49,052 nt of DNA from contig CAIJIZ010000751.1 of assembly GCA_903820735.1 (NCBI GenBank), positions 1-49,052 on the forward strand, given 5' to 3'. The translations under genes and the position numbers were made by a program. The notes below the pieces were generated by a model, which saw only the letters and a list, made by a program, of their open reading frames with translations, did not search any database and was not told where the DNA came from. Positions within the stretch are counted from its first letter, which is position 1, and each line of letters begins with the position of its first letter. Source of the stretch: an uncultured Pirellula sp. (lineage in GTDB: Bacteria; Planctomycetota; Planctomycetia; Pirellulales; Pirellulaceae). Below, piece by piece: positions 1,415 to 5,845 of the stretch.

Positions 1415-2026
1415 CTACCCACTATGCCGAAGATGCCGACAGTGGTTAAGAACGTACGAGTTGGAAAGCAATGCCACGATGACCCCAATGCGCTGTACGA
1501 TTCCGATACCTCCTAGATCCCAGTTCTTGGTGCCAGCCCAAGTGAGCAGCAAAATCACCGTCAGCGAAATCACCGTCAGCGAAATTGCATGGAGGCCCCA
1601 AAAACTTCGCCATAACTTTAGTTTCCATAAAGCGAAAAGCGGAGCGAGAATTGCTCCGAACAAGGTTGCATAAAACGCATAAAAGTGGACGATTGAATGT
1701 GGCTCCGACGCAACAACCGTAACCAGACAAAGAAGTACCAAGAACGCTACAAGGGCTGCTATCGATTGACCGAAATATCGGTACAGCAGTCCGGTCGCAA
1801 TTGTCAAAGTTAGCGACGAACAAAAGAAAAGGATCGCGAGCCGATTGCCTTCCGCATACTCAACGCTGATAGGAGTATTGAAGTCGTTGAGCCCCGCTTG
1901 ATGCAAAGTCAGGCAACATGTAGCGGTGAGGATACCCAAGACTAGGAACATGTCCCACAAGACGCTTTGAGTCGTAGAAGTAGTCGCTTTGGCCCTTTTC
2001 TCTTCGTTGCAATAACTATTGCGCAC
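1415..2026 (-). CDS. Multi-pass membrane protein of unknown function
   Basis: This 203-residue protein is not recognised as a member of a named family. After a short basic N-terminus it has about five hydrophobic stretches suited to membrane helices, starting at residues of roughly 25, 60, 90, 115 and 145. The start is taken as GTG at 2026 because a strong Shine-Dalgarno (GAAGGAGG) lies six bases upstream. That site falls inside the end of the preceding LRR gene, which overlaps by 11 bases, so translation is probably coupled. Two tandem copies of a 15-base unit (about 1555-1584) encode a duplicated SLTVI pentapeptide in one membrane helix. The reading frame is well supported by the ribosome-binding site and overlap; the function is unknown. 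Confidence 0.65.
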   Translation of the reverse strand: MRNSYCNEEKRAKATTSTTQSVLWDMFLVLGILTATCCLTLHQAGLNDFNTPISVEYAEGNRLAILFFCSSLTLTIATGLLYRYFGQSIAALVAFLVLLCLVTVVASEPHSIVHFYAFYATLFGAILAPLFALWKLKLWRSFWGLHAISLTVISLTVILLLTWAGTKNWDLGGIGIVQRIGVIVALLSNSYVLNHCRHLRHSG

Positions 2027-2558
2027 GAATGCCTCCTTCGATCTTCACGTTTGGTCTCAATCGCCTAAGGCGTTCGATCCCATCGGCGCTAATGTCGGTT
2101 CCGTCGAGCTTGAGGATTTCAAGGCGATCAATTTTGGCGAGGTCCTCTACACATTGGTCCGTCAAATTGGTATTCGTCATCCAAATATGCCTCAGGCCAG
2201 AGATCTTGGGTAGAAGCTGTATGTCTTCATCTCTCACATCGCTGACACTTAAAATGACCATGCGCAATGATTTTAGACGGGTGAGCACTTGAAGACTTTG
2301 GCGAATTCTGACAACGCCTTTGAGGTCGACGACTTGAAGCTCATCGCATGCTTCAGCGAACTCTGGGGCGATCAAATGACGGAAGCGAGCGGACGAAACG
2401 GCGCCATTTGCATCAAATGCTACTGCGAATGCACCCAGTGATTTGAGTTGGTGTTGCTTCGCGCGACGCTTTTGAAATGGCTCGCTGAACCCGTATACAA
2501 TCGTTAGAGAGCCAATGAGGCTGAAGAAGCAAACCAGTAATGAGCGTTGATCAACCAA
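2016..2558 (-). CDS. Membrane-anchored leucine-rich-repeat protein
   Basis: The 180-residue protein has one N-terminal hydrophobic segment (about residues 7-24), then a linker, then a short run of leucine-rich repeats from about residue 70. Repeat-like units include LTRLKSLRMVILSVS, LPKISGLRHIWMTNT and LAKIDRLEILKLDGT, ending in a capping segment. This is the small-LRR type common in planctomycetes, where such proteins usually sit at the membrane with the repeats facing a partner. The first codon appears to be TTG at 2558, with no convincing Shine-Dalgarno, so the start is uncertain. The stop overlaps the start of the downstream membrane-protein gene, making a two-gene unit. The partner is unknown, though the overlap suggests the two products act together. 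Confidence 0.7.
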   Translation of the reverse strand: MVDQRSLLVCFFSLIGSLTIVYGFSEPFQKRRAKQHQLKSLGAFAVAFDANGAVSSARFRHLIAPEFAEACDELQVVDLKGVVRIRQSLQVLTRLKSLRMVILSVSDVRDEDIQLLPKISGLRHIWMTNTNLTDQCVEDLAKIDRLEILKLDGTDISADGIERLRRLRPNVKIEGGIRAQ

Positions 2559-2677: not shown

Positions 2678-4576
2678 TTAAGGTTCCCCTAGGGAGTGTT
2701 TCAGAAGCGGTCGAATGAGCTGACGAATTTCTATCGGTAATCGAAACAGCGGGCGATCCGATCGTGGCTGGGTTTTCATGACTTCGACAGTAGCGTTGAG
2801 ACAACGCAATGGAATTTCCAGGTCTTCGCAGTCATTCCCGGCATGTTGCCATGCTGCATTCCATGTGTCGATCTGCGATTGGGAGAAACCGCCTTCATCG
2901 AGAAGATGGATTGACTGAGTGACGCCTTGGCCTAGCTTCTCTGCGACTCCATATTGAATGTACAGCGAAGCGATCTGTGACACGTAGCTTGACCACTCGA
3001 CCGGGCTTTTTTTGAGTACCATCGCCAATAGATCGTTTGGGGTCCCACCATACGCATCGGTCGCGGGGGTTCCAAGTTCGAATGCTCTCTTGAGTGCTTT
3101 GGCTAGATCATCTTGATTGCAGTAAGCGATCATTGGCTCGACTACCGCGAAAAGTGCTTCGGTGCGATGCAGAGAAGAAACGGATTTGATTTGTAGGACG
3201 GCTTCATAATCCTCAGCGCTATCTCGAAATAGTCCGTCTTGCCAATAGCGAGCACCTCGATTAAGGCGAGCCAATACTTCTTGGTCAACCGGCGCGTCGG
3301 GCATGTCGATGACAGCGGAGTAGTCAGCCAATTCTTTTAGTGTGTCGCCTTGCCGATCGTAGGCGACTGCTCGACCCGCGTTTGTTTCGGTCGCTCCCTT
3401 TCGCAAGGCTGTTAGGGAAAACCATGCGCGAAGGAATCGAGCTACGAGTCTCAGTGGACGACCGTGTTGGGTTTTGGCTTCCAAGCAAAGGCGCATAAGC
3501 GGTTCTACCATGTCATAGTACGATTCTTTGCCCCGCTTTTCTGACCGAACGTATCCCGTGGACTTTAGATTGCCAAGTTGCTTAGCGCAGGTTCGTTCTT
3601 CGATAAACGTCTCGCCTGCAATCTGCTTTACAGTCATCGCGCCCTGCGCATCGCACAAGCATTGGACGAGTTGACGCTGCTGATCTGGCAGAGAACGCAT
3701 ACGTTCTTGGAAGAATGGGGTCAAGTCATTGGCTAGACCTTCAAGCGCCGAAACGAGGTCGTTGAGAGATTTCTTAGTCAGAAACTCTGCTAATAAAACG
3801 TACATCCGGTGATTACCACCGGCGAGGTAGTGCAACGCACGAACTCGAAAACGACCTTCAGGGGATTTCAGATACTCGACAAGCTCCGGCTTGGACTGTT
3901 CGAGGCTGATACGAGCCATCAATTCGGCTGCTTGGTCGACGGAAAGAGGCTCTAAGTGCTGGATGTCAAAAAAACCAAAGAAGGGGTCGTTTCGACTCGA
4001 TACCCCGGTGAACAAACGTTGGGCCGTCGCGAGTGTGGCGATCTTTCTCGTCTCTTGCAGGAACGCTCGCCATTTTTTTTGGCCTGTATCGCCCAGGCTA
4101 TGGAAGGTCTGATCCATGTTTTCCGTGACGAGGAGCAAGTTGCGATTCCCAAGATGTTTGATCGTCGAATGCAACACCGAAAGAGCGGCGTCATCTTGCG
4201 ATAGTCCGCGAACTGGATTTTTAAAGTCGGCCGGGAACTCGTTGGGATACTCTTGCGCCAATCGACTGGCAATTCCGAATGCCAGGTGAACGAGTCCAGT
4301 AAATGTATCGTCTTCACCGAGCCAAGCAATCCGCATGCAATCATCGAGTTCGCTCTTATCTTGCAGTGCCCAAACGGCGAGGGTGACAAGATTGGTTTTC
4401 CCGCATCCTCGAGGTCCGACAAGGAGGATGTGGTTTTTGTCTTCGGTTGCCATGCTTTTGGCAAGTCGTCCGACGATTCGTTCGAGAAGCTTGTGCCTTT
4501 GCACGAAAATTCGCTTTAAGATCGCATAAGGGGTGTTGCTTGGTGTGTAGGTTGAAAGCAGATGTCTTTCTCTCAT
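2678..4576 (-). CDS. AAA-type ATPase with winged-helix and TPR-like C-terminal region
   Basis: A 632-residue protein begins at ATG 4576, which overlaps the stop of the upstream ATPase gene as ATGA and follows a GAGGG ribosome-binding site; a longer start at 4654 is therefore unlikely. A Walker A motif GPRGCGKTN (residues 54-62) and a Walker B-like LLLVTENMD (about 147-155) mark an Orc1/STAND-like ATPase core. A winged-helix-like segment follows (about 315-385, with VKQIAGETFIEERTCAKQLGNLKSTGYV). From about 400 the protein is helical with TPR-like units (AVAYDRQGDTLKELADYSAVI, LNRGARYWQDGLFRDSAEDYEAVL). ATPase plus wHTH plus TPR suggests a nucleotide-driven switch or regulator. A defence or stress role is possible but is only inferred from the setting beside transposon debris. 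Confidence 0.8.
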   Translation of the reverse strand: MRERHLLSTYTPSNTPYAILKRIFVQRHKLLERIVGRLAKSMATEDKNHILLVGPRGCGKTNLVTLAVWALQDKSELDDCMRIAWLGEDDTFTGLVHLAFGIASRLAQEYPNEFPADFKNPVRGLSQDDAALSVLHSTIKHLGNRNLLLVTENMDQTFHSLGDTGQKKWRAFLQETRKIATLATAQRLFTGVSSRNDPFFGFFDIQHLEPLSVDQAAELMARISLEQSKPELVEYLKSPEGRFRVRALHYLAGGNHRMYVLLAEFLTKKSLNDLVSALEGLANDLTPFFQERMRSLPDQQRQLVQCLCDAQGAMTVKQIAGETFIEERTCAKQLGNLKSTGYVRSEKRGKESYYDMVEPLMRLCLEAKTQHGRPLRLVARFLRAWFSLTALRKGATETNAGRAVAYDRQGDTLKELADYSAVIDMPDAPVDQEVLARLNRGARYWQDGLFRDSAEDYEAVLQIKSVSSLHRTEALFAVVEPMIAYCNQDDLAKALKRAFELGTPATDAYGGTPNDLLAMVLKKSPVEWSSYVSQIASLYIQYGVAEKLGQGVTQSIHLLDEGGFSQSQIDTWNAAWQHAGNDCEDLEIPLRCLNATVEVMKTQPRSDRPLFRLPIEIRQLIRPLLKHSLGEP

Positions 4577-5235
4577 CCCTCGAGCCCCTGTGCTAATTTC
4601 CACCACTTCTGAATCAAGGGAAAGCGAAAGTAGTATCGCTTTGTCTGGTCGCAATTCAAGTAATGGTCTAGAGCGAGGGACTTCAAGAGGTTAACGATGT
4701 GGTTTCGATCGTTAAGTTGAAAACTGCTTTTGACTACATTCCAAATTTGTTCGATGGACTGTGGGTGCGTCAAGGTAGCCATATGGTCGAGGATTGCTCG
4801 AGCTATATCATCATCGCGCAGGGGTTTTCCCGTGATGTCGTTAAGGACGTGGTGCAAGCCAACGGAGCCGGCATAGATCATGCGAAGATTTGTGTACTTC
4901 TGGCGAACTGAACGCAAAGTATCCAGTAGGGTGATCGCTTGGGTTTTTGATTCATTATCCCTGCCGATCGACGCGATTTTTTGAAGCATGTAAGGTAGTT
5001 CATCGAAAATCAGTAGGATTTTCGTGTCTTTGTTATGCTCGCAGATCCCTTCAACATCCATGAAAAAAACGTGGTAACCAGGCTGCGGTTCCGCGGACAT
5101 TTTCGTCATCACGGTGGTCTTGCCAACGCGACGTTCTGCTGTAAACCGAAGGGAATTGGTTTCCAGTTTTCTCCATACGGAATCGATAAGCTTGTCGCGT
5201 CCGACGACGTTTTTTGGGCCAATCTGATTTGCCAT
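4573..5235 (-). CDS. Compact AAA-type ATPase (ATPase_2-like), apparently internally shortened
   Basis: A 220-residue ATPase starting at ATG 5235, directly after an AGGAGG ribosome-binding site; an upstream extension to 5499 lacks any such site. It shows an N-terminal VGRDKLIDSVWRKL helix, a P-loop AERRVGKTT (residues 33-41), a Walker B ILLIFDELPYML (about 73-84), a sensor-like MIYAGSVGLHHVL (119-131) and a C-terminal YYFRFPLIQKWW. Compared with my recollection of related proteins of about 350-400 residues, the stretch between DVEGI and the Walker B, and another after GLHHVL, look shortened while the frame is kept. It is either a natural compact form or a gene with in-frame deletions. It is translationally coupled to the larger downstream ATPase gene, so the products probably form a complex. 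Confidence 0.7.
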   Translation of the reverse strand: MANQIGPKNVVGRDKLIDSVWRKLETNSLRFTAERRVGKTTVMTKMSAEPQPGYHVFFMDVEGICEHNKDTKILLIFDELPYMLQKIASIGRDNESKTQAITLLDTLRSVRQKYTNLRMIYAGSVGLHHVLNDITGKPLRDDDIARAILDHMATLTHPQSIEQIWNVVKSSFQLNDRNHIVNLLKSLALDHYLNCDQTKRYYFRFPLIQKWWKLAQGLEG

Positions 5236-5269
5236 CTTTCCTCCTGCCGCCCTTTTTTCGTACGACATT

Positions 5270-5300
5270 ATTATCGCACGATGGATTTGTCGTGTGTCAA
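5270..5300 (-). promoter_or_regulatory. Putative sigma70-type promoter of the ATPase pair
   Basis: On the minus strand TTGACA (5300-5295) is followed after 19 bases by GATAAT (5275-5270). The predicted start lies near 5263, about 28 bases before the ATG at 5235. The -35 is a perfect match and the -10 matches five of six, but the spacer is long. Confidence 0.4.
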
Positions 5301-5611: not shown

Positions 5612-5845
5612 TGGTCCTACAAAGAGCTCTTACGCGATCTCTGGGCCCACGAGACAGAGGGGAAGGCAAAGAGTTACTTCAGAGATTGGTATCAGCGAGT
5701 CATTCGTACCAAGATCACGCCGATGAAAAAACTAGCGCGGAGTTTGAAGGAGCGAATCGATAACATTGTTCCCTACTGTAGGCATGCGTTCAACATCCTC
5801 TACCGCAAAGCCAAATTCCTTTGCCACATGGTCTTTTGCCAATAG
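5612..5845 (+). pseudogene. Transposase remnant, ISL3-like
   Basis: An open stretch of 77 codons without a start encodes KAKSYFRDWYQRVIRT, then KITPMKKLARSLKERIDNIV, then PYCRHAFNILYRKA. This matches, from memory, the C-terminal part of ISL3-family transposases (FRDWYQ.AIR..I.PMK..A..LK.R..NI..Y.RH). The N-terminal two-thirds is absent, with a stop just upstream at 5594, and the frame runs into unrelated sequence before the stop at 5843. The element is therefore dead. It lies next to a degenerate copy of the dispersed tRNA-associated repeat, which supports a history of insertion and decay here. Confidence 0.65.

What the first reader, a model, noticed from the sequence alone, without database searches (positions are those of the whole stretch)
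2678..5235. Translationally coupled pair of distinct ATPases
Two ATPases, one compact and one with wHTH and TPR-like parts, overlap as ATGA under one promoter, next to transposon debris. Pairs of ATPases with a C-terminal sensory region are a recurring plan for defence or signalling systems. I cannot name a known system with this pair.
Basis: partly seen in the sequence, partly recalled or inferred. Interest (0 to 1): 0.6.

Follow-up and report, generated by a model that had tools for sequence, protein, structure and literature searches.

The report
Damaged copy of a paired-ATPase cassette
A planctomycete carries a two-gene cassette for two linked molecular-switch proteins, found in several bacterial groups, but in this genome the first protein has lost large internal pieces, so the 'compact' enzyme is most likely a damaged version rather than a new type.

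Summary
The two overlapping ATPase genes are real: A 5235..4573 (220 aa), B 4576..2678 (632 aa), minus strand, ATGA overlap. The pair is conserved: of 40 loci held with a near-complete A profile, 38 have a B match directly behind it (some were fetched through B), among them 10 of 10 such loci fetched from the class of L070. The 'compact' ATPase is not the family's form: close relatives have about 403-408 aa, and the window copy lacks about 65 and 118 residues, including beta-5 and the helical lid. Sister loci carry other lesions: L061 and L062 frame-breaking deletions, L063 no N-terminal part. B stays open there. Complete A folds like SSO1545/PAB2304 (STAND core); B is an ORC/Cdc6-like ATPase with wHTH, variable TPR array and conserved C-terminal module. 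A's promoter carries palindromes 16 bp apart (10 of 12 close promoters); the strict pattern has one place in this assembly, which suggests self-regulation. Outside A and B, no neighbour family spans more than 4 of 33 loci; the families listed for 137 neighbours are mainly housekeeping, though some plasmid relatives sit beside Qat, Pycsar or AbiE genes. Best reading: a decaying, self-regulated sensor-ATPase pair; defence unproven.

The parts
4573..5235 (-). Gene A remnant (P0001, 220 aa): SSO1545/ATPase_2-type ATPase with two internal in-frame deletions; keeps Walker A (RRVGKTT), Walker B (LLIFDELP) and C-terminal winged helix
5044..5052 (-). Deletion junction 1 (after residue 64): about 65 residues missing; GAAGGGATC at the junction resembles sequence at both edges in relatives
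4842..4843 (-). Deletion junction 2 (about residue 131/132): about 118 residues missing (beta-5, helical lid, following helix)
2678..4576 (-). Gene B (P0002, 632 aa): ORC/Cdc6-like AAA+ ATPase, wHTH (about 293-361), shortened TPR array (about 390-475), conserved C-terminal module
4573..4576 (-). ATGA stop/start overlap of A and B; an NTGA overlap is seen in 13 of 27 loci printed, window included
5258..5300 (-). Promoter/operator: TTGACA (5300-5295), palindromes TCGTGCGA (5281-5274) and TCGTACGA (5265-5258) 16 bp apart, plus a degenerate third site over the -35
5618..5800 (+). ISL3 transposase fragment (neighbouring debris, not part of the system)

Best explanation
The window holds a decaying member of a two-gene ATPase cassette that occurs in several bacterial groups. 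SHOWN by sequence or model: gene A (normally about 400 aa) is a P-loop ATPase with a helical lid and a C-terminal winged helix; gene B is a second, unlike P-loop ATPase with wHTH, a TPR array of variable length and a conserved C-terminal module; A and B are adjacent, often overlapping by 4 bp; in close relatives A's promoter carries palindromes 16 bp apart. In the window copy A lacks nearly all of the segment between strand 2 and Walker B, beta-5 and the lid, so it is very probably inactive as an ATPase, and B has fewer TPRs than most relatives. INFERRED: B is the sensor, its TPR array and C-terminal module hold its ATPase closed until a ligand binds; A is the partner ATPase core, and the two assemble with ATP. 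One of them (more likely B, through its ArsR/MarR-like wHTH) binds the tandem palindromes and represses the operon, so the pair sets its own level. The output is unknown: no nuclease or other effector domain was recognised in either protein. Loss of A would silence the output while B can persist for a time as an autorepressor.
For: A deletions against 5 complete relatives; different lesions in L061, L062, L063. A-B adjacency: 9 of the 10 other genomes with an A hit among 392 of the phylum; 10 of 10 near-complete A loci fetched from the class of L070; overall 38 of 40 loci with a near-complete A profile. Complete A (L070, pLDDT 82, pTM 0.75): best PDB matches 2qen and 2fna (TM about 0.6), then Cdc6/Orc1 and plant NLRs. 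B: 6mfv (STAND with TPR sensor), then ORC/Cdc6 chains (low TM). Operator: 10 of 12 close promoters with sites 16 bp apart, 0-3 of 500 shuffles each; the strict pattern has one place in the window's assembly, the A promoter; the same layout with other letters in distant pairs L153, L158, L160 (no shuffle control). B conserved with dN/dS about 0.1 among L060-L062.
Against: The retained parts of window A show no faster change than B predicts (close comparisons z -1.5 to 0.7; far ones slower still), have no stop or frameshift, and both deletions keep the frame (1 in 9 if lengths are random); this also fits a selected mini-A. L062, whose A is out of frame, shows the same lack of acceleration, so the test cannot tell recent loss from function; the A remnant of L060/L062 also has dN/dS 0.10. 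No DNA binding, ligand or A-B contact was tested. Operator pairs were not found by the criteria used in 2 of 12 close, 4 of 7 farther and 6-7 of 10 most distant promoters. The strict operator pattern also occurs in 16 of the 99 genomes that have no close pair, at places not examined, against 2 genomes for the reversed control. B persists without a whole A, and a near-complete A without B occurs in L122 and L145, which a strict two-part machine would not predict.
Confidence: 0.6

Rival explanations
1. Mini-A is functional: in this lineage A was cut down to a compact regulatory subunit (N-terminus, Walker motifs and winged helix) that still works with B, for example as a DNA-binding partner.
For: Both deletions keep the frame; 220 codons without a stop; of 14 residues invariant in 23 complete or near-complete A proteins the 12 outside the gaps are kept (read); retained parts evolve no faster than in intact pairs; L063 keeps an open 111-codon A C-terminus.
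Against: Lid and beta-5 are gone; sister loci L061 and L062 have frame-breaking lesions at other places and L061 keeps only about 40 C-terminal residues; no other locus held shows the window's form.
Confidence: 0.2
2. The intact pair is an anti-phage defence system (STAND-like sensor plus partner ATPase), lost here for cost.
For: Patchy presence; several unlike copies in one genome (L072 and L073; L062 and L124); a plasmid copy beside qatD, kinase, PRTase-CE and ORC-CDC6-like genes (L120), B-like genes beside Pycsar and AbiE (L117) and cyclase/ThiF genes (L116); fold kin include Avs3 and NLRs; frequent decay.
Against: Families listed for 80 and 57 neighbours are mainly housekeeping, with PADLOC hits largely generic (ABC, kinase, UvrD, RapA) apart from single ones such as an AbiLi-like gene (lists capped at 25 families); no PADLOC family fits A or B along its length; no effector domain recognised; no match in 50,697 phage records and nothing convincing in viral contigs.
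Confidence: 0.25
3. Toxin-antitoxin-like cassette: A harmful when unpartnered, B the restraining and self-repressing partner, so A is what gets deleted.
For: Two overlapping genes, operator-like repeats at their promoter, no constant neighbours; A damaged with B open in window, L061, L062, L063 and apparently in L084, L086, L123.
Against: A without a whole B exists: L122 has two near-complete A in tandem and no B in 12 kb, L119 a near-complete A with a B match of only about 50 positions. B is far larger than usual antitoxins (recalled). Several loci were found through B, which hides B losses.
Confidence: 0.12
4. Assembly artefact: the deletions come from misassembly of a draft genome (842 contigs).
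For: The window is a whole contig of a draft assembly.
Against: Two clean in-frame junctions inside one gene, over 4 kb from the nearer contig end; other genomes carry other lesions of the same gene.
Confidence: 0.04

Closest known systems
SSO1545 / PAB2304 (archaeal AAA+ ATPases, PDB 2fna, 2qen; ATPase_2 type, Pfam PF01637)
   Same: The complete A model aligns over nearly its whole length (TM about 0.6): ATPase core, helical lid, winged helix.
   Different: Sequence identity 13-16%; the Pfam ATPase_2 score is 14 against a cut-off of 33 in L066; A is nearly always next to B; the window A lacks the lid.
PH0952 / MalT-type STAND ATPases with TPR sensor (PDB 6mfv; PMC6468293, abstract and passages seen)
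   Same: ATPase, winged helix and TPR sensor in one chain; PH0952 is the best PDB match of B (E 3.6e-8) and is called there a predicted transcription factor with an ArsR-like domain.
   Different: TM only 0.22 (domain packing of the B model is poor); PH0952 has its ArsR-like domain at the N-terminus; B has a partner ATPase and an extra C-terminal module.
Orc1/Cdc6 initiators
   Same: B matches many ORC/Cdc6 chains, A some; ATPase plus winged helix, repeated DNA sites.
   Different: The sites lie in a promoter, at one place in the window's assembly; B has TPRs; no link with replication was looked for beyond the neighbours.
IniR (mycobacterial STAND regulator; PMC5760070, passages seen)
   Same: STAND ATPase dedicated to one operon.
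   Different: IniR activates a separate operon, iniBAC; here the only site found is the cassette's own promoter. No sequence comparison was made.

Membership tests
STAND ATPases (A) | NBD - helical domain - winged helix core (NOD) | tested here: met
   Complete A (L070) by AlphaFold2 and Foldseek; NOT met by the window copy, which lacks the helical domain.
STAND ATPases (A) | GxP-type motif in the helical domain | tested here: inconclusive
   An invariant Pro (P261 of L070) lies there in 23 aligned A proteins; the Gly is not constant.
STAND ATPases with TPR sensor (B) | Repeat-type sensor behind the winged helix | tested here: met
   TPR hits in complete relatives; landmark spacing 63 to 485 residues in 11 loci measured, window 122.
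STAND ATPases with TPR sensor (B) | NTP-driven oligomerisation and an effector domain | not testable with these tools
   No effector domain recognised; oligomerisation needs protein.
ORC/Cdc6-like AAA+ (B) | AAA+ core with lid Arg (sensor 2) and winged helix | tested here: inconclusive
   Invariant G-G-N-x-R (253-257) and wHTH; Foldseek kin at low TM. The meaning of the motif is recalled, not from a call.
Known anti-phage systems (PADLOC 2023) | Significant full-length match of A or B to a listed family | tested here: not met
   complete A proteins none at E <= 0.01, window A one weak hit (E 0.03), B only wHTH, P-loop or repeat stretches
Known anti-phage systems | Location in defence islands | tested here: inconclusive
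   80 and 57 neighbours mainly housekeeping in the families listed; three plasmid contexts with defence genes.
IstB/TniB transposon helpers (B) | Neighbouring cognate transposase | tested here: not met
   Only an ISL3 fragment near the window copy; apart from A and B no neighbour cluster spans more than 4 of 33 loci.
Toxin-antitoxin pairs | One gene toxic alone, the other neutralising | not tested
   needs expression in a laboratory strain

The most novel reading that the evidence does not exclude
A bacterial two-ATPase switch, conserved across phyla, in which a partner STAND-type core (A) and an ORC-like sensor ATPase with a rapidly resizing TPR array (B) act together on tandem palindromes 16 bp apart whose letters co-evolve with the proteins; in Pirellulaceae it is being stripped down to B alone or B plus a mini-A, showing which half can live without the other. 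This would be a prokaryotic counterpart of sensor/partner pairs of NLR-like proteins.
Probability: 0.25. Interest if true: 0.6.

Novelty: new variant of a known kind. Interest (0 to 1): 0.4.

Why it matters
If the reading holds, an uncatalogued ATPase pair with its own operator code is present in a few percent of the genomes sampled in two groups (11 of 392 and 17 of 369 with an A hit, weak ones included) and can be studied with a simple reporter. The Pirellulaceae lesions are a natural dissection of the pair. It also warns that a 'compact' enzyme read from one genome may be a deletion product, which only relatives reveal.

Tried and rejected
Natural compact ATPase: rejected against complete relatives. 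Third conserved gene: apart from A and B the largest neighbour clusters span 4 of 33 loci. Defence-island association: 80 of the 104 neighbours listed and 57 of about 95 ORFs other than A and B in L153-L162, chosen by hand, were scanned; only the first 25 of 35 and of 69 PADLOC families are printed, so single hits may be missed, and no control set of neighbours was run. dN/dS as proof that B works without A: not usable, because the A remnant gives the same value (0.10, L060 against out-of-frame L062). Relative-rate test of window A: no signal either way. Phage and viral collections: no match, or one short doubtful one. Solved-structure sequence search with A: no credible hit. One ancestral inactivation of A: the tree puts the four damaged loci in a six-member group of modest support (92/98) that also holds L071 with intact A and L060 unknown; the label needs 3 changes, well supported branches force 2; lesion ends differ. 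The count of A damage against B damage is biased, since L060-L071 were fetched through B. Literature: the searches, of which I saw the listings (some capped), showed no paper on this pair; they cover one open-access library and these terms only.

Full report
OBSERVATION. On the minus strand A runs 5235..4573 (220 aa) and B 4576..2678 (632 aa) with an ATGA overlap. The window is a whole 49,052-base contig of a draft assembly of 5,898,119 bases in 842 contigs, which has no second place for either protein at E <= 0.001. Named records with close copies of the cassette are planctomycetes such as Pirellula sp. (L062) and Rhodopirellula sp. JC639 (L063). The window A gives only weak family hits (AAA_14 at E 0.008); B gives weak AAA_16, ArsR/MarR-like wHTH and ORC-like hits. 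ISL3 transposase debris lies at 5618-5800.

THE COMPACT ATPASE IS A DELETED COPY. Complete A proteins of close relatives have about 403-408 aa. Against five of them the window A lacks alignment columns 69-133 and 202-319, about 65 and 118 residues, both in frame. In the model of the complete A of L070 (mean pLDDT 82, pTM 0.75) the first gap removes nearly everything between strand 2 and the Walker B strand, the second removes strand 5, the helical lid and the following helix. Walker A, Walker B and the winged helix remain. At the first junction the window reads GAAGGGATC; relatives have similar letters at both edges, which fits a deletion between short repeats, without proof. Near relatives show other lesions (numbers of the L066 protein): L062 has residues 1-45 and then 318-404 in another frame, L061 residues 1-44 and then 368-404 in another frame, L063 only residues 295-405 behind unrelated sequence, L089 a 66-residue N-terminal stub with stops and no B. 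In L060 and L067 the contig starts inside A, so nothing can be said. L084, L086, L090 and L123 also show partial A profiles (not followed up).

B. B of the window and of L060-L063 is an open frame. The first 390 or so residues and the last 150 or so are conserved, the TPR array between them varies: spacing between fixed landmarks 122 residues in the window, 63 in L062 (no repeat left), 266 in L061, 342 in L060, 332 in L063, and 158-485 in L065 and L067-L071; L072 was not measured. B of L060, L061 and L062 differs with dN/dS of about 0.1, but so does the A remnant of L060 against L062 (0.10), so the A losses are recent or the test is blind. A regression of A against B identity on 30 pairs of intact loci puts the window A remnant on the line for close relatives (z -1.5 to 0.7) and below it for far ones. 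A tree of B's N-terminal part groups window, L060, L061 and L062 (98/97); L063 and L071 join at 92/98. L071 has an intact A, the other four assessable members of this group have damaged A, and the label needs 3 changes.

THE PAIR ACROSS BACTERIA. In 392 genomes of the phylum, 25 have a B hit (E up to 0.001, several of them TPR-only) and 11 an A hit, window included in both; in 9 of the 10 others with A, A lies directly before B. In 99 closer genomes, window included, 18 have a B hit and 9 an A hit. In 369 genomes of the class of G486 (the genome of L070), 17 have an A hit at E up to 1e-10; 11 stretches were fetched, of which 10 hold a near-complete A and all 10 a B right behind it (in L159 cut by the contig end) and one an A fragment without B; six genomes with weaker hits were seen only in short loci. 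Over all loci examined, 40 have a near-complete A profile (L161 only from position 30); 38 have a B match behind it, in L119 of only about 50 positions; the two exceptions are L122, with two A in tandem and no B within 12 kb, and L145, a remote hit inside a longer ORF. L060-L071 were fetched through B, so they do not count as independent evidence for B. NTGA overlaps occur in 13 of 27 loci printed. Moraxella osloensis plasmids carry the pair (L115, L120); on mycobacterial, Agrobacterium and Sphingobium plasmids B-like genes were found without A in the stretch fetched, which for L117 begins only about 1 kb before the gene.

PROMOTER. Upstream of A, palindromes TCGYRCGA (up to one mismatch) lie exactly 16 bp apart in 10 of 12 close promoters, against 0-3 of 500 dinucleotide shuffles for each; the first site overlaps TTGAC of the -35 in most. 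In the window that first site is degenerate. Of 7 farther promoters 3 show ACGTACGT-like sites 16 bp apart. Of 10 still farther promoters, L153 (ACGTACGT), L158 and L160 (TAGTRCTA) show the same layout and L156 perhaps; no shuffle control was run there. The strict pair pattern has one place in the window's assembly, the A promoter, and lies at the A promoter in G404, G405 and G410; it also occurs in 16 other of the 99 genomes at places not examined, against 2 genomes for the reversed control. These data suggest, and do not prove, that the cassette's own protein reads the sites.

SURROUNDINGS. Apart from A and B, no neighbour cluster spans more than 4 of 33 loci. For 80 neighbours the leading PADLOC hits are generic ABC and kinase models and the Pfam families listed are largely metabolic. 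For 57 further neighbours the leading hits are UvrD, RapA and DUF4143 families plus one AbiLi-like, beside housekeeping families. The lists are capped at 25 families and no control set was run. On plasmids the picture differs: L120 has qatD and a kinase on one side and dUTPase, PRTase-CE and ORC-CDC6-like genes on the other; L117 has Pycsar and AbiE genes; L116 cyclase and ThiF genes.

MECHANISM. Fold searches put A with SSO1545 and PAB2304 (TM about 0.6) and then Cdc6/Orc1 and plant NLRs; B with PH0952, ORC/Cdc6 chains and Avs3, at low TM because the domains of the B model are poorly packed (pTM 0.46). Work on PH0952 and MalT (PMC6468293, abstract and passages) describes how arm and TPR sensor keep such an ATPase closed until an inducer binds. 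I infer the same for B, with A as partner core and with wHTH-borne self-repression. IniR (PMC5760070, passages) shows that a STAND ATPase can serve one operon only. The BREX survey (PMC12839542, passages) reports ORC/Cdc6 and STAND ATPases side by side in defence loci, without this pair in the passages seen.

VERDICT. The window holds a decaying copy of an unnamed ATPase pair built from known kinds of ATPase; the family and its operator layout deserve a test, the window copy itself much less.

Noticed in passing
L120 (Moraxella osloensis plasmid pNP7-2) 1-10535: qatD, kinase, a transposase, the A-B pair, dUTPase, PRTase-CE and ORC-CDC6-like genes lie in a row: a possible defence cluster that includes the pair.
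   Followed up: partly
L122 4606-5919 and 3464-4669: Two near-complete, unlike A genes in tandem with no B within the 12 kb fetched; in the same genome a B with a broken A lies on another contig (L123).
   Followed up: partly
L114 5956-7125 and L118 5010-6161: Short B-like proteins (389 and 383 aa; MarR-type wHTH, no TPR hit in L114) without A on mycobacterial plasmids; in L118 a Ser/Thr kinase gene overlaps its end.
   Followed up: no
G393, G413, G440: Nearly the same stretch TCGTACGACATACGCCTCG(T/C)ACGA recurs in genomes without a close pair; it may be coding sequence or another regulator's site.
   Followed up: no
L061 13-8616 and L062 322-9174: Giant related ORFs (2867 and 2950 aa) upstream of the damaged A in two sister genomes; the window shares none of the recurring neighbours of L060-L062, so its copy seems to sit elsewhere.
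   Followed up: no
window 2016-2558 (-): Small protein with weak leucine-rich-repeat hits just downstream of B.
   Followed up: no
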